DNA of 64,000 nt, taken from NCBI RefSeq assembly GCF_017357525.1, contig NZ_CP036172.1, forward strand, positions 124,001 through 188,000, read 5' to 3'. Position 1 is the first letter of the stretch. Each line of letters starts with the position of its first letter. The notes below the pieces were generated by a model that did no database searches, was not told the origin of the DNA, and saw only the letters and a list, made by a program, of their open reading frames with translations. Shown here in pieces: positions 12,336 to 26,445 of this stretch. The position numbers and the translations under genes were made by a program. This stretch comes from Methanofollis aquaemaris. GTDB taxonomy: Archaea > Halobacteriota > Methanomicrobia > Methanomicrobiales > Methanofollaceae.

Positions 12336-12916
12336 CGACGAAGGCGGCCGTCCTCTGGGACCAGCCCGGCACCTTCAACCGGTACGTCGACGAGTGCTGC
12401 GGGATCTGCTGCGAGCACCTCACCCAGCACCTCATCGCCGCCCCCTTCTTCCGCGGCCGGTACGTGGCCCTGGTCATCCCGACCGGGTTTGCGAACCAGG
12501 CCTACTCCCGACTTCTGCCGGGACTGCGGGCGGCCTCGGGCAGGATCGAGCGGTTCGTCGAGAACGGCGGCCGGCTCCTCGTCTTCGGTGCCGCCGACGA
12601 ACGGCCGGGTGCCTACGACTGGCTCCCCTTCGAGGTGGAGTACAGATTCGAGTTCGGGCAGAGGAGCCTGGGCTTCGCCGACGGCGAAGAGCGGTATGCC
12701 CCGATCCTCGATGGCTACGACCTCGCCGCCGTCGAGACCGACGGGTTCTTCCCCGCGCACGAGGGGGAGGTCGTCGCCGGGACCCCTGAGGGCCAGGCGG
12801 TGATCATCAGAAAGGACATCGGCGACGGTGAGATCCTGGTCACCAGCACCCACGAATATCCGTCTGCAAAATTTATGGGCACTTTCTGCACCGCGGAAAG
12901 AGAAACCTTATTCTAG
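12332..12916 (+). CDS. Conserved hypothetical protein, GATase-like N-terminus
   Basis: A 194-residue protein overlapping the rtcB stop by four bases (ATGA). It has a CCGICCEH cluster near residue 22, then VALVIPTGFANQAY and RIERFVENGGRLLVFGAA, which is the Rossmann-like pattern of class I glutamine amidotransferase/ThuA-like folds without an obvious catalytic Cys-His pair. Coupling to rtcB suggests a linked role but none is known to me. Confidence 0.65.
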   Translation: MTTKAAVLWDQPGTFNRYVDECCGICCEHLTQHLIAAPFFRGRYVALVIPTGFANQAYSRLLPGLRAASGRIERFVENGGRLLVFGAADERPGAYDWLPFEVEYRFEFGQRSLGFADGEERYAPILDGYDLAAVETDGFFPAHEGEVVAGTPEGQAVIIRKDIGDGEILVTSTHEYPSAKFMGTFCTAERETLF

Positions 12917-12946
12917 AAGAACGTAATGGAGTGTACTGGTGGGACC

Positions 12947-13369
12947 ATGGACCAGTATATCATCTCTGCCTCGTCCACGTCCGACGACCTCCTGCCGATG
13001 GTGATGGCGCTCCACCATCTCCTCGGCGGGCTCCCGGTCACGGCGCGTTCCAGAGACGTTCCGGGCCTGCGGGTCGAGGATAAGAAAGTGCTCGACGACC
13101 GGTATACCGGTCCGGTGCTCGAAGCCGCGATCCAGGGGAACGAACTGAAGAAAACTGTTCCTCGGTCCGGCCCGTACCGGGGGGTGCCGGTCGTCGTCGC
13201 CCCGGTGCGGGACGGCACCGGCACGGCGATCGGCGCCATCGGCGTCGTCGATATCACCGGCATCTTCGACCTTGCCACGCTCATGGAGCATCAGTCTGCG
13301 ATCCTGCAGCAGGTCTGTGGAAAAGATCCCTGTCCACTCCCGACAGAATCTGTCGCTGCGAAAAGGTAA
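12947..13369 (+). CDS. DUF2111 family protein
   Basis: A 140-residue protein starting MDQYIISASSTSDDLLPMVM. The section VPVVVAPVRDGTGTAIGAIGVVDITGIFDL resembles a PAS/GAF-like sensor core and matches DUF2111 proteins of methanogens. An ATG at 12926 is also in frame; I prefer 12947 because GGTGGGA stands just before it. Its stop overlaps the birA start (TAATG), so it may be read with the biotin genes. Confidence 0.65.
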   Translation: MDQYIISASSTSDDLLPMVMALHHLLGGLPVTARSRDVPGLRVEDKKVLDDRYTGPVLEAAIQGNELKKTVPRSGPYRGVPVVVAPVRDGTGTAIGAIGVVDITGIFDLATLMEHQSAILQQVCGKDPCPLPTESVAAKR

Positions 13370-20235: not shown

Positions 20236-20345
20236 GCTGCGGTGGCCTAGTTGGTTAGGGCGCCAGACTCATAGGGTTTAGAGTGTCACGGAGCGCCCAG
20301 ATCTGAGATATCTGGAGGTCGGGGGTTCGGATCCCCCTCGCAGCA
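20236..20345 (+). tRNA. tRNA-Met (CAT), probably elongator, with intron
   Basis: A cloverleaf can be drawn. Acceptor GCTGCGG pairs with TCGCAGC, with discriminator A and no encoded CCA; the D-arm is GCCT...GGGC; anticodon stem CCAGA/TCTGG has loop CTCATAA after removing an intron of about 36 bases (20274-20309) at the canonical 37/38 position; the T-arm is GGGGG/CCCCC with loop TTCGGAT. Anticodon CAT could also be tRNA-Ile2; the stem sequence favours elongator Met. TATAATGC at about 20209 fits a promoter. Confidence 0.85.
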
Positions 20346-20507: not shown

Positions 20508-20812
20508 TTCACGCACGACCCCATGCTCATCTTGTCGATTCTTCTGTTCGGCTTCCTCCTCTGGTCGTCCTTCGCGGCCACGATCTCCATGGTTCATGAG
20601 CTCGTGCCAACACAGATCGGCCTGATCTTGGGACATTTCATGGGGATCGCCATGGGTGCGGGCGGGATCGGCGGTTCGATCCCCGGCGTGATCACCGACC
20701 ATTTCGGTCTGACGGCAACGCTTGCAACGTTCACCTAATTGTCTTTCTTGCGACGGTTCTGTTCGCCACGGTCGGGTATCCGTCGAAGAAAGACGGAACT
20801 GTGGAAGAGTGA
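20508..20812 (+). pseudogene. MFS transporter, C-terminal remnant with frameshift
   Basis: In one frame the stretch reads MVHELVPTQIGLILGHFMG and GGIGGSIPGVITDHFG, typical of transmembrane helices 10-11 of a major facilitator transporter. Near 20730 the frame breaks; the next frame continues VFLATVLFATVGYPSKK to a stop at 20812. The N-terminal two thirds are missing. It lies directly behind the tRNA-Met gene. Confidence 0.6.
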
Positions 20813-21016
20813 AATCGTGAGGAGTCAGCCATCAATATAATCTATGGTGAGGTCCGGGGAGATTGAGAATCGCCGCTCATGTCTCTGCTCACAGATGGGA
20901 CGCGTGCGTTTCAACTGGATACTGGAGAGAGTAAGGCCTAGGCTCCCCCGGAGAATTTTTTACCAAAAAAATTCCGCGAATGTGAGAAAGACTGTCCGGT
21001 AAAATCGGAGAAATAG

Positions 21017-21069
21017 TGCGAGGAGTGGGATTCGAACCCATGGACACCTTCGTGACCGGATCTTAAGTC
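21017..21069 (-). other. Orphan 3' half of a tRNA-Leu(TAA) gene; probable attachment-site scar
   Basis: Read on the minus strand this is GACTTAAGATCCGG, then a variable-arm-like stretch, GGGTTCGAATCCCAC and CTCCTCGCA. This matches anticodon loop to acceptor end of a tRNA-Leu(UAA). The 5' half (acceptor, D-arm and most of the anticodon stem) is not there: bases beyond 21069 have no tRNA character. A 3' tRNA half starting at the anticodon loop is the usual product of integrase recombination at a tRNA gene. Confidence 0.7.
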
Positions 21070-21094
21070 TCATACATTCACATGGCACAGGACT

Positions 21095-21233
21095 CGGTAG
21101 TGCCCCAGAATAGAACTGAAAATCTATTTCAGAAAATCGGACCTAATTCCGTCGAGCAGTGACTTGTATTCATAGCAGAAACTCGCACAGAGAGAGTTTT
21201 TTTTGTTATCAGTTATTGCCTGGGGCACTACCG
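21095..21233. mobile_element. MITE-like element with 14-bp perfect terminal inverted repeats
   Basis: CGGTAGTGCCCCAG at 21095-21108 is exactly inverted at 21220-21233, and the next bases (AATAGAACTGA against AATAACTGA) continue the similarity. The 139-base element has no reading frame. No target duplication is evident at the borders. It looks like a small non-autonomous transposon; its parent element is not in the window. Confidence 0.6.
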
Positions 21234-21393
21234 AAAATTCAATGAAAGAAATTATTGAAAGCGTAGATTATAAAGATCTTATCGCTCGATTGAAGAAGGA
21301 TTTAGAGATCCAAAGTGGGTAACGTAGTTATTTGCATTTGAATTTTTCAAGATATCCAAGATTTTATATTCTATGATTTCAGCGAGATCGTTA

Positions 21394-22146
21394 TCATATA
21401 ATTTTCGGGCATTTTCCATTTAATGGGCATTGTTCGCAGTCGGGATTACTTGGTTTACACCACCCATTCCCAATTTCCCAGCAAACAGAATCATAAAATC
21501 CAGGATATTCGGGATATATTTTCTGGGCGATTTCAATGATCTCCTTGATTTTTGCATCCCTTGGAGCCAAACCCATTCTCTTGAAAACACGTTCAATATG
21601 CACATCACCAGAAACATCAATAGCACGATGATTCGGTAGCGGTAATTTGAAATCCCGGACGAGTACGTTTACCGCCATCGTAGAAATCTTCTGTCCCACT
21701 CTATGAAATTCCTGGAATCTTCTAATGACCGTCTTACAGTCAGGCTCGTCCCACGTCCAAATGTTGGATGCGTCATTATCATATTCAAAATGGATTTTTT
21801 GTATCGCAGCGTGGAAAGCAAAAGCCATTTTATCATTAAAATGGTGTAAGGAATGTTCATGGAAAATAGATTTCGTAGTAGCGAGATCTAGTTTCAAAAA
21901 AGATTCAAAATCCTTTCCATTCAACAACTCTGATATAAAATATGGGATAATCCAGCCACGCTGAAATACGATTTGTTGGTTCATTATACTGCCTAGAACG
22001 AAAAAATGTGGAAAATGTTCGATATCATTGATTATTTTATCTGCCCCAACGTTTTTAGTAAATTCAATTATCACTCGAGGCCGCTGGTGTAATTCAAGCG
22101 CCTGGGAAAGAAGAAAATCTTCCAATTCTTTATTCGATGAGGCCAT
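21394..22146 (-). CDS. Endonuclease III-family Fe-S DNA glycosylase-like protein
   Basis: A 250-residue protein (MASSNKELEDFLL). The C-terminus has C-x6-C-x2-C-x5-C (WCKPSNPDCEQCPLNGKC), the [4Fe-4S] loop of endonuclease III. RVGQKISTMAVNVL is a plausible helix-hairpin-helix with the lysine position kept, and AIDVSGDVHIERVF holds the catalytic-type aspartate. The N-terminal 120 residues are unlike housekeeping endonuclease III. Codon use is AT-rich compared with the core, and the gene sits alone beside a tRNA scar and MITE, suggesting recent transfer. CTATATTTTATTTA at about 22172-22185 is a good TATA region for this start. Confidence 0.7.
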   Translation of the reverse strand: MASSNKELEDFLLSQALELHQRPRVIIEFTKNVGADKIINDIEHFPHFFVLGSIMNQQIVFQRGWIIPYFISELLNGKDFESFLKLDLATTKSIFHEHSLHHFNDKMAFAFHAAIQKIHFEYDNDASNIWTWDEPDCKTVIRRFQEFHRVGQKISTMAVNVLVRDFKLPLPNHRAIDVSGDVHIERVFKRMGLAPRDAKIKEIIEIAQKIYPEYPGFYDSVCWEIGNGWCKPSNPDCEQCPLNGKCPKII

Positions 22147-22759
22147 AAAACATGATTTAAATTTTGGAGTAAATAAAATATAGGTCAGGATATCCCGTGC
22201 GTAATTTAGCAATAATTAGAGCCATCATTTTTTCATGCAAAAATAAAATTATTAATCGAGTACATATAAACACATTGTGTCATCAAAAATCTACTTCAAA
22301 GAAATCGATGTTGTAATTTACTTTCCAGAATATGGAAATGAGAATTGAGATATAAAGAAATATGGCGTTGCATACCGAGATCGCTTCAACAAAAAGAGTT
22401 AATCGGGCGTGAGAATCAATTTCAAAGATGTCTTAGTTATCCTGCGTTAAAAAATCAATATCCCCACACTATAGAGGATTTCCATTAACCCCTCTTTTTT
22501 CAAAAAAATCTGAATTATCGTGTCCTCTTCTCAGCGACGGCCAGACGGAGCATCAAACACATCCCGAAAGAATATGCCCTCAAGGTCGGTGAAGAGTTGG
22601 TGTCCCTCGCATCTGGATAAAGTGATGGTCATCCATGGTATCGAGGTGGGGCACCGAAGTAAGGTGTATCGGAAATATTGACACCTCTATCATTCAACCA
22701 AAAAAGAAAACCGAATAAAAAAACTTTAAATTTTTTCTCAGAATGGCCACATCGGGGAC
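22147..22759. other. Intergenic, AT-rich, with a short coding-like remnant
   Basis: No complete gene is seen. Around 22525-22609 one plus frame reads SIKHIPKEYALKVGEELVSL and then a stop, with GC-rich third positions like the core genes. It is probably the end of a lost gene that I cannot name. Confidence 0.35.
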
Positions 22760-23140
22760 ATGCTCTTTCGTTCACCTTCCGTTGAGGCGGCCTTTGTTGA
22801 TCGGTCTGCCTTCCTCCTCCTGCAGTTTGTTCAGGTGCTGTGGAGGCCGGAGCAGGGCGGGACCAGGGCGGGACCAGGATGGGACCAAGCTGGGACCAAG
22901 ATAGACCTTGATCCAGAAAGTGTCGAGATCCTGCGTGCGTGCATGACAGAGAAGCCCATGGTCGAACTCCTCACCGTTGCCGGCAGGACAAACCGCACCA
23001 GGTTCAGGGACCAAGTTCTCAGGCCCCTGCTCGATGCCGGACTTGTCGAGATGACCATCCCCGAGAAACCAGGAAGCGGCAAACAGAGATGCCGGGCCAC
23101 GGAGAAAGGACATGTTCTGATCGGAGAAGATCGTTCATGA
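22760..23140 (+). pseudogene. C-terminal remnant of an AlbA_2/ATPase (COG2865-like) protein
   Basis: The frame ends PLLDAGLVEMTIPEKPGSGK and GHVLIGEDRS, closely matching the C-terminal winged helix of the intact gene at 24225-25673 (MTIPAKPKSSRQ, ALIGEDRS). It also has the QFVQVLWRPEQGGTR linker typical of the family. The N-terminal AlbA_2 and ATPase parts are absent. The 3' end GGAGAAGATCGTTCATGAAT is identical to that of the intact gene, so the latter is bracketed by a direct repeat. Confidence 0.65.
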
Positions 23141-24228: not shown

Positions 24229-25673
24229 AAATAGAGAATATCAGAGAGGTTCTGCTGCTTGGAGATGACCAGAGCATTGAGGTTTTATCCCGGTGCCTGG
24301 ATCTAGAACACATCGGCACAACAGTCTGTGGTTTTCTCAATACGTCCGGGGGGTCTATTGTATGTGGGGTGGACGATAAGGGGAACATTATCGGCATCGA
24401 TGACGCCGAGAATGCGGCGAGGGATCTTGAACGTGGACTGTTACATGGTCTTTCTCCTACGGCGCTGGTTTCTGTTCAGGTATATAGAGTTGAAGAGGAG
24501 ACCTTGCTGGTTGTCGAGGTGCCGGCCGGCAAGGATCTGCCGTACGCATTTGAGAATGTGATTTATCTTCATGAAGGTCAGACCACCCGAAGAGCAGATG
24601 TCGAAACGATCCGCGACATGGTGCTCCGCAAACAGGTTGAACCAGAGAGATGGGAACGGCGTTTTTCTTCCGCCGACATGAAAATCGATCTGGACGGAGA
24701 TGAAATTCGTTCCGCGATCCATGCCGTGAATAAGTCTTCTCGATTTCAGTTTCGAGATGGTGACAATACGGTCATGGTTCTTGAAGACCTTGCAGTGTGC
24801 CGATATGGCCGCCTGACCAATGGCGGCGATGTACTCTTTGGAACCAATCCCGCGATGCGTAACCCCCAGGTCAGGGTACGTGCCGCCTGTTTTACGGCAG
24901 ACAGGACCGACGACACCTACAGAGATATGAAGTCCTTTGAGGGGCCTCTGGTCCCGGTTTTAGAGAATGTATTCCGTTTTATTCAACGAAACACTCCCAC
25001 AATATCGCGTTTTGGGAAAGGCAATCTGGAACGCCGGGACGACTCCCTCTATCCGGTGGCGGCGATCAGGGAGGGGTTGGTGAACGCCTTCGTCCACCGG
25101 GACTATAGTAATTTTTCCGGAGGGATTGCTGTTTCCATCTATCCCGACCGCCTGGAGATCTGGAACTCCGGTACATTCCCTGAAGGGGTAACCCCTGATG
25201 ACCTATCGACCGGTCACATCTCGGTGCTGCGTAACCCTGACATTGCCCATGTACTTTATCTGCGGGGGTTGATGGAGAAGATGGGCCGTGGGAGCGTGAT
25301 GATCAGGAAGGCCTGTGATGAAAACGGTTTACCTCTGCCGCGGTGGTCGGAGGATGACCGCGGGGTCACTCTTACTTTCTATGCCCCGGAAGTCACCCCG
25401 GAAGTCACCCCGGAAGTCACCCCGGAAGTCACCCCGGAAGTCACCCCGGAAGTCATACGGATGCTCAGGGTCTTTGAAGGAGAGATGTCTCGGAAGAACC
25501 TCCAGGATATTCTCGGTCTGAAAGACAATGAACACTTCAGGAAAACCTATCTGCTGCCAGCAATCCACGACAATCTGATTGAAATGACGATCCCGGCCAA
25601 ACCTAAGAGCAGCAGGCAGAAATATCGCCTCACTGAGAAAGGACGTGCTCTGATAGGAGAAGATCGTTCATGA
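24225..25673 (+). CDS. AlbA_2 (Schlafen-like) ATP-binding protein, COG2865-like
   Basis: A 482-residue protein in three parts. Residues about 20-130 form an AlbA_2 domain (GGSIVCGVDDKGNIIGIDD, then YLHEGQTTRRAD). Residues about 270-390 are a GHKL-like HATPase_c_4 domain (REGLVNAFVHRDYS, RGLMEKMGRGSVMIRKAC). The C-terminus is a winged helix (MLRVFEGEMSRKNLQDILGL ... ALIGEDRS). A linker repeats EVTP several times, encoded by a 12-base tandem repeat at about 25389-25454. Such proteins are nucleic-acid linked regulators or defence factors; role here unknown. Confidence 0.8.
   Translation: MKIENIREVLLLGDDQSIEVLSRCLDLEHIGTTVCGFLNTSGGSIVCGVDDKGNIIGIDDAENAARDLERGLLHGLSPTALVSVQVYRVEEETLLVVEVPAGKDLPYAFENVIYLHEGQTTRRADVETIRDMVLRKQVEPERWERRFSSADMKIDLDGDEIRSAIHAVNKSSRFQFRDGDNTVMVLEDLAVCRYGRLTNGGDVLFGTNPAMRNPQVRVRAACFTADRTDDTYRDMKSFEGPLVPVLENVFRFIQRNTPTISRFGKGNLERRDDSLYPVAAIREGLVNAFVHRDYSNFSGGIAVSIYPDRLEIWNSGTFPEGVTPDDLSTGHISVLRNPDIAHVLYLRGLMEKMGRGSVMIRKACDENGLPLPRWSEDDRGVTLTFYAPEVTPEVTPEVTPEVTPEVTPEVIRMLRVFEGEMSRKNLQDILGLKDNEHFRKTYLLPAIHDNLIEMTIPAKPKSSRQKYRLTEKGRALIGEDRS
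25389..25454 (+). repeat. 12-base tandem repeat inside the AlbA_2 gene
   Basis: GAAGTCACCCCG is repeated about five and a half times without change and encodes EVTP units between the ATPase and winged-helix domains. Perfect identity suggests copy number can vary by slippage without shifting the frame. Confidence 0.8.
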
Positions 25674-26021: not shown

Positions 26022-26445
26022 TTGTGAACTGAATCCGTTGCCCTCCTTGCAGAGCCACTCTTTCTGGCCCGATACATCGAGAAAGCCGGCACCGGCACCC
26101 TCGATATGATCGATCTATGCGAGCGGGCGGGCCTCTCTTCGCCGATGTTCAGGCAGGAGGGCGGGCAGTTTGTTCAGGTGCTGTGGAGGCCAGAGCAGGG
26201 CGGGACCAGGATGGACCTTGATCAGGAGAGTGTCGAGATCCTGCGTGCGTGCATGACAGAGAAGTCCATGATCGAACTCCTCACCGTTGTCGGCAGGGAA
26301 AAACCGCACCAGGTCCAGTGACCAGATCCTCAGGCCCCTGCTCGATGCCGGCCCTGTCAAGATGACCATCCCCGAGAAACCAGGAAGCGGCAAACAGAGA
26401 TACCGGGCCACGGAGGGTGATCACGCGAGTATTTCCCGCGAACGA
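26022..26445 (+). pseudogene. Second C-terminal remnant of an AlbA_2/ATPase protein, frameshifted
   Basis: It reads AEPLFLARYIEKAGTGTLDM then IDLCERAGLSSP and FVQVLWRPEQGGTRMDLDQE, the conserved end of the ATPase domain and linker. Near 26300 an extra A in a GGGAAAAACC run breaks the frame; homology to the copy at 22760-23140 continues in another frame (ILRPLLDAGPVKMTIPEKPG). It has lost its N-terminus and true stop. Confidence 0.65.

What the first reader, a model, noticed from the sequence alone, without database searches (positions are those of the whole stretch)
21017..21069. tRNA-Leu 3' half marks an integration scar
The minus strand carries anticodon loop, variable arm, T-arm and acceptor 3' end of tRNA-Leu(TAA), but no 5' half. 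Integrases recombining within tRNA genes leave such halves at one element end. The region from here to 26.5 kb holds a MITE, an AT-rich glycosylase and AlbA_2-type genes and remnants, consistent with an old island. No integrase is visible.
Basis: partly seen in the sequence, partly recalled or inferred. Interest (0 to 1): 0.65.

Follow-up and report, generated by a model that had tools for sequence, protein, structure and literature searches.

The report
Relic end of a tRNA-swapping archaeal element
The half tRNA gene is the broken-off right end of a mobile DNA element that splits one of the cell's leucine tRNA genes and, in its intact relatives, brings a complete spare copy of that same tRNA; this was known for some bacterial viruses, and I found no report of it in archaea.

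Summary
Window 21017-21069 (minus) is the 3' half of tRNA-Leu(UAA). It starts in the anticodon loop, has no 5' partner anywhere in the genome, and is 96% identical to the intact gene in three congeners.

It is the right junction (attR) of an integrated element. The 24 nt on its element side match the ends of intact integrated elements in other Methanomicrobiales. A 142-bp MITE (21094-21235) lacking its 8-bp target duplication sits where the rest of the gene was.

The intact relatives are the larger finding. In 11 elements with both ends read, integration splits a tRNA-Leu gene at the anticodon loop with a 7-14 bp core (10 of 11), too short to rebuild it. A complete tRNA-Leu lies about 100 bp inside the left end, with the same anticodon in 10 of 11. 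UAA, UAG, CAA and CAG genes are hit. This works like the 'tRNA-dependent lysogeny' of mycobacteriophages (2024), here in archaeal plasmid-like elements.

Unresolved: how the relic came to lie 284 kb from the intact tRNA-Leu(UAA) gene, whose own locus is uninvaded.

The parts
21017..21069 (-). Displaced 3' half of a host tRNA-Leu(UAA) gene; the crossover core GACTTAAGATC is at 21059-21069
   Evidence: 51/53 nt identical to the intact genes of G005, G008, G009 and 48/53 to the genome's own
21070..21093 (-). Right arm of the element (attR arm), GTCCTGTGCCATGTGAATGTATGA
   Evidence: 19/24 identical in register to arms of intact elements in G047, G066 and G030 (binomial p = 4e-8 each), 17/24 to G055, 16/24 to G079
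21094..21235 (.). 142-bp MITE with 29-nt terminal inverted repeats, sitting where about 1.1 kb of integrase gene stood; lacks the 8-bp target duplication seen in two other copies
   Evidence: inverted repeat I1; other copies at G000:C1:2155524 and in G005; flanks compared
21242..21319 (+). C-terminal stub (26 codons, stop at 21320-21322) of the element's tyrosine recombinase
   Evidence: HMM of family C-termini: best of 1949 six-frame segments of the window, E = 5.6e-6, next 0.46, reversed control 0.72; same orientation and place as the integrase in intact elements
21394..22212 (-). Endonuclease III-like (HhH, 4Fe-4S) glycosylase gene in the AT-rich block; possibly element cargo (inferred)
   Evidence: PF10576 hit; found in only 5 of 232 genomes of the order and in no congener
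20823..22500 (.). Block private to this genome that holds the relic
   Evidence: congener DNA matches end at 20822 and resume at about 22501; GC 0.33-0.39 over 21000-22499

Best explanation
The half tRNA is the attR junction of a decayed integrative element. The element's tyrosine recombinase recombined a short core with the anticodon loop of a host tRNA-Leu(UAA) gene and split it; the 3' half with the element's right arm is what remains here. In intact members the element does not rebuild the gene at the junction. It carries a complete tRNA-Leu, nearly always of the same anticodon, about 100 bp inside its left end, so the cell keeps that tRNA only while the element stays or after precise excision. 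Shown: half, arm, core, integrase stub, MITE in place of the integrase body, and the anatomy of intact relatives. Inferred: that the window's own element also carried a tRNA, that the substitute tRNA is expressed and required, and that the relic later came to this locus.
For: Half identical to congener genes at 51/53 nt, with a paired variable-arm change. Arm next to it conserved in intact elements of five genomes. Integrase C-terminal stub in the expected place and orientation, E = 5.6e-6. MITE without target duplication, so DNA beside it was lost. Eleven intact elements with both junctions: joined flanks give an intact tRNA-Leu in all, anticodon equal to the element's tRNA in 10, core 7-14 bp in 10. 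In G047 and G066 the element-borne gene and the attR half are the only matches to the half. Congeners G001, G007 and G011 show the left junction of this family at the native tRNA-Leu(UAA) locus.
Against: No left end, no element tRNA and no second tRNA-Leu(UAA) survive in this genome. The native tRNA-Leu(UAA) locus here is uninvaded and collinear with G005, so the relic lies away from any known target. The stub is only 26 codons long.
Confidence: 0.88

Rival explanations
1. Ordinary tRNA-gene island: the window's own element carried a 3' half in its attP and rebuilt the host gene at attL, as most islands do; the half here is simply the displaced fragment.
For: This is the usual mode (PMC8371274). 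The genome's own tRNA-Leu(UAA) has a different 3' half (variable arm CCC-GCAG-GGG) from the displaced one, as replacement of the 3' half would give.
Against: Every relative whose left end was read has a dangling 5' half and a complete tRNA instead. The own tRNA-Leu(UAA) locus shows no element beside it.
Confidence: 0.1
2. Route to the present locus: the relic was moved here from the native tRNA-Leu(UAA) locus by chromosomal inversion or another rearrangement, rather than formed in a second tRNA-Leu(UAA) copy (for example one borne by an earlier element) that stood here.
For: pycA and tRNA-Leu(UAA) lie about 40-285 kb apart in varying relative orientation across congeners. The family invades the native locus in G001, G007 and G011.
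Against: No breakpoint was mapped. The 194 bp beyond the half match no native downstream flank of tRNA-Leu(UAA). A degraded integrase of this family lies in the same interval in G003, which would also fit an element that once sat here.
Confidence: 0.5
3. A split, trans-spliced tRNA gene: the half is transcribed and joined to a 5' half from elsewhere.
For: Split tRNAs exist in some archaea (established knowledge).
Against: No orphan 5' half in the genome; a complete tRNA-Leu(UAA) gene exists; the half's T-stem is broken and it folds worse than shuffles.
Confidence: 0.01

Closest known systems
tRNA-dependent lysogeny of actinobacteriophages (Guerrero-Bustamante and Hatfull 2024, PMC10865867)
   Same: Tyrosine integrase, attB in a host tRNA gene, common core of about 8-17 bp so the tRNA is not rebuilt, and an element-borne tRNA of the disrupted isotype.
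   Different: There: bacterial temperate phages, tRNA-Lys and one tRNA-Leu(CAA), with experimental proof that the tRNA is required. Here: archaeal elements with Orc1/Cdc6, primase and helicase genes, tRNA-Leu of at least four anticodons, the tRNA next to the left end, and no experiment.
tRNA-Thr(GGU) disruption in Caldiarchaeum subterraneum (Sugahara 2012, PMC3293823)
   Same: An archaeal 5' tRNA fragment upstream of a complete gene of the same anticodon, with a recombinase gene between them.
   Different: A 1.8-kb transposon-like unit, read by its authors as a route to introns and scattered tRNA fragments; only its abstract and outline were read here.
Archaeal tyrosine recombinases that use tRNA genes (SSV-type, pTN3, pT26-2, SNJ2; review PMC8371274)
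   Same: Tyrosine recombinases with attB in tRNA genes; the SSV1 overlap region is the anticodon loop.
   Different: The review says integration restores an uninterrupted tRNA gene; here it does not, and the integrase gene lies whole at one end, outside the att site.
Genomic islands in tRNA genes (Islander, PMC4383910)
   Same: A displaced tRNA fragment marks one end of the element.
   Different: Islander's rule is that island DNA regenerates the target gene at the junction; that fails in this family.

Membership tests
Methanomicrobiales tRNA-Leu anticodon-loop element family (defined here from intact relatives) | Right arm plus 3' half of tRNA-Leu starting in the anticodon loop | tested here: met
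   window 21017-21093 against five intact ends
Methanomicrobiales tRNA-Leu anticodon-loop element family (defined here from intact relatives) | Integrase of the A1 family beside the right arm, reading inwards | tested here: met
   only a 26-codon C-terminal stub remains, E = 5.6e-6
Methanomicrobiales tRNA-Leu anticodon-loop element family (defined here from intact relatives) | Dangling host 5' half and complete element-borne tRNA-Leu at the left end | not testable with these tools
   left end lost in this genome; present in all 13 relatives whose left end was read with a recognisable 5' half
tRNA-dependent lysogeny | attP and attB share too short a core to rebuild the tRNA | tested here: met
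   in intact relatives, not in the window: 7-14 bp core in 10 of 11
tRNA-dependent lysogeny | Element encodes a tRNA of the disrupted isotype | tested here: met
   in intact relatives: same anticodon in 10 of 11; G064 ambiguous, CAG left and GAG right
tRNA-dependent lysogeny | Element tRNA is required for survival of the integrated state | not testable with these tools
   in G047 and G066 no other tRNA-Leu(UAA) was found; needs experiment
tRNA-dependent lysogeny | Element is a temperate phage | tested here: inconclusive
   Orc1/Cdc6, primase and helicase hits and no virion genes among the ORFs tested; integrase family not found in IMG/VR

The most novel reading that the evidence does not exclude
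Methanomicrobiales carry an undescribed family of plasmid-like integrative elements that splits tRNA-Leu genes at the anticodon loop and replaces them with its own, so that in several lineages (for example congeners G001, G007 and G011) the tRNA-Leu(UAA) gene in use is of mobile-element origin and the element is hard to lose: an archaeal counterpart of tRNA-dependent lysogeny.
Probability: 0.75. Interest if true: 0.65.

Novelty: new variant of a known kind. Interest (0 to 1): 0.55.

Why it matters
The authors who described tRNA-dependent lysogeny left open how far it reaches beyond actinobacteriophages (PMC10865867). These elements suggest that it exists in archaea, with one integrase family working across several leucine isoacceptors. 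They also show a current process that cuts archaeal tRNA genes at the anticodon loop into halves 8-45 kb apart, which bears on how split tRNA genes could arise, and they show essential tRNA genes being replaced by mobile-element copies.

Tried and rejected
Split/trans-spliced tRNA: rejected. An element at the native 429-kb tRNA-Leu(UAA) locus of this genome: rejected, the locus is collinear with G005. ARAGORN's 'tRNA-Leu(GAG)' at 20276-20345 as partner or target: rejected, it is the 3' part of an intron-containing tRNA(CAU) at 20236-20345. Three further matches to a tRNA-Leu 5' half in the genome (73548, 625431, 756875) looked like orphan left ends but are complete tRNA-Leu genes (GAG, CAG, GAG). 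DUF4062/AlbA_2 genes as element cargo: rejected, shared with G009 at the same locus. IMG/VR scan with the integrase: no relatives. Relatives of the DNA at 20823-21016: none in the loci compared. Literature terms for an archaeal version: nothing found in the open-access papers searched.

Full report
Observation. The minus strand at 21069-21017 is the 3' half of tRNA-Leu(UAA), starting in the anticodon loop. The genome (2.75 Mb, one contig, window = 124001-188000) has one intact tRNA-Leu(UAA) at 429269-429352. The half matches it at 48 of 53 nt and matches the intact genes of congeners G005, G008 and G009 at 51 of 53 nt, including their variable arm CAC-GAAG-GTG. Against the genome's own gene, the variable-arm change CCC to CAC is paired by GGG to GTG, so the half came from a once-functional gene of the genus's type; a TC-to-CT change at the T-stem/acceptor joint marks it as dead now. 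No orphan 5' half exists in the genome.

It is an attachment site. A search of 80 genomes (this one and 79 relatives) found five relatives in which the match runs on past the half into the nucleotides on its other side. There, those nucleotides are the right arm of an integrated element. The 24-nt arms of the window and of G047, G066 and G030 agree at 19 positions in register (binomial p = 4e-8 each), G055 at 17, G079 at 16. G047 and G066 are near-identical, so they count as one.

Integrase remnant. In intact elements a tyrosine recombinase of about 379 aa starts a few tens of nucleotides beyond the arm and reads away from it. It has PF00589, a weak N-terminal SAM-like match and paired cysteines near the C-terminus that look like a zinc ribbon. 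In the window the same position holds a 142-bp MITE and then, in the same orientation, MKEIIESVDYKDLIARLKKDLEIQSG-stop. An HMM of the family's C-termini finds this as the best of 1949 six-frame segments (E = 5.6e-6; next 0.46; reversed-sequence control 0.72). By my reading of the flanks, two other copies of the MITE have 8-bp target duplications (GAATCATC, GATGATTG) and the window copy has none. So DNA on one side has been lost since it inserted, here about 1.1 kb of integrase gene. Recombination between two MITE copies would give the same picture.

Intact relatives. A profile of four integrases found close relatives in several families of the order and in named Methanoculleus, Methanoregulaceae and Methanosarcina records. 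Beside them lie 3' halves of tRNA-Leu whose loops read UAA, UAG, CAA, CAG or GAG. For 11 elements both ends were read: a host 5' half ending in the anticodon loop, a left arm, about 100 bp, a complete tRNA-Leu, the body of the element, the integrase, the right arm, the host 3' half. Ten have both ends on one contig and measure 7.8-44.8 kb; G055's ends lie on two contigs. Joining the two host flanks in a script gives an intact tRNA-Leu in every case, and its anticodon equals that of the element's tRNA in ten (UAA five times, CAG three times, UAG, CAA). In G064 the two junctions disagree in the loop (CAG left, GAG right), so the identity of its host gene is open. The core shared by both junctions is 7-14 bp in the other ten. 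So the host gene is not rebuilt; it is replaced. In G047 and G066 the only matches to the half at E <= 1e-5 are the element-borne gene and the attR half.

Closest kin. In congeners G001, G007 and G011 the native tRNA-Leu(UAA) locus, recognisable by its upstream sequence, is followed by a left junction and an element-type tRNA whose D-stem differs from the host type. In G001 and G007 the dangling 5' half is intact; in G011 it has worn away. The family has therefore invaded tRNA-Leu(UAA) within this genus.

Cargo. G047 carries an Orc1/Cdc6-like protein, G064 a DUF5906/D5-type primase-helicase, G002 a UvrD-type helicase and a DnaG-like primase; no virion genes were seen among the larger ORFs tested. 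They look like integrating plasmids, though many of the proteins tested have no match.

Place of the relic. Matches to congener DNA reach 20822 on the left (the stretch 20616-20822 lies at other places in G010 and G011) and resume near 22501 on the right. The block between is private to this genome, AT-rich over 21000-22500, and holds a glycosylase gene found in 5 of 232 genomes of the order. The native tRNA-Leu(UAA) locus at 429 kb is collinear with G005 and empty. Hence the relic either moved here or formed in a second tRNA-Leu(UAA) copy that stood here. Congener G003 has a degraded integrase of this family in the same interval between pycA and the prenyl-reductase gene, a hint that this locus has held such an element before. 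This step is unresolved.

Comparison. The mechanism matches tRNA-dependent lysogeny (PMC10865867). Its authors saw it in actinobacteriophages, cite one Lactobacillus prophage, and say the wider prevalence is unknown. I found no archaeal report in the open-access papers searched; most subscription papers are not in that library. The review of archaeal recombinases says integration restores an uninterrupted copy of the tRNA gene (PMC8371274), which these elements do not do at the junction.

Shown and inferred. Shown by sequence: half, arm, core, stub, MITE without target duplication, and junction anatomy in relatives. Inferred: that the window's element carried its own tRNA (all relatives with a readable left end do), that the element tRNA is expressed and needed, and the route to the present locus. 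The genus is probably Methanofollis; that is a guess from kinship and base composition, not tested.

Noticed in passing
window 20236-20345 (+): ARAGORN's 'tRNA-Leu(GAG)' at 20276-20345 is a miscall: the full gene is an intron-containing tRNA with anticodon CAU. DNA beyond its 3' end differs in nearly every congener, and G003 has another integrase directly beside it, so it looks like an integration hot spot.
   Followed up: partly
window 25384-25455: Six head-to-tail copies of a 12-bp unit (CCCCGGAAGTCA) in the AlbA_2/RecG-like gene encode a PEVT repeat; a similar run occurs in G009.
   Followed up: no
window 22822-23104 and 26165-26415: Two 87-98% identical stretches flank the DUF4062/AlbA_2 genes: fragments of the C-terminal part of AlbA_2-type genes, a gene graveyard shared with congeners.
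   Followed up: no
L180 (G064:C1:1315000-1334999): Element whose left junction reads CAG and right junction GAG in the anticodon loop: either a cross-isoacceptor insertion or a mismatch resolved in the overlap.
   Followed up: no
L106 (G003:C1:1030000-1049900), 12612-13181 (-): Degraded integrase of the same family in the syntenic interval of a congener.
   Followed up: partly
L197 (G011:C222), L195 (G001:C36), L196 (G007:C51): Congeners whose tRNA-Leu(UAA) has been replaced by an element-borne copy; in G011 the split host 5' half has decayed beyond use.
   Followed up: partly
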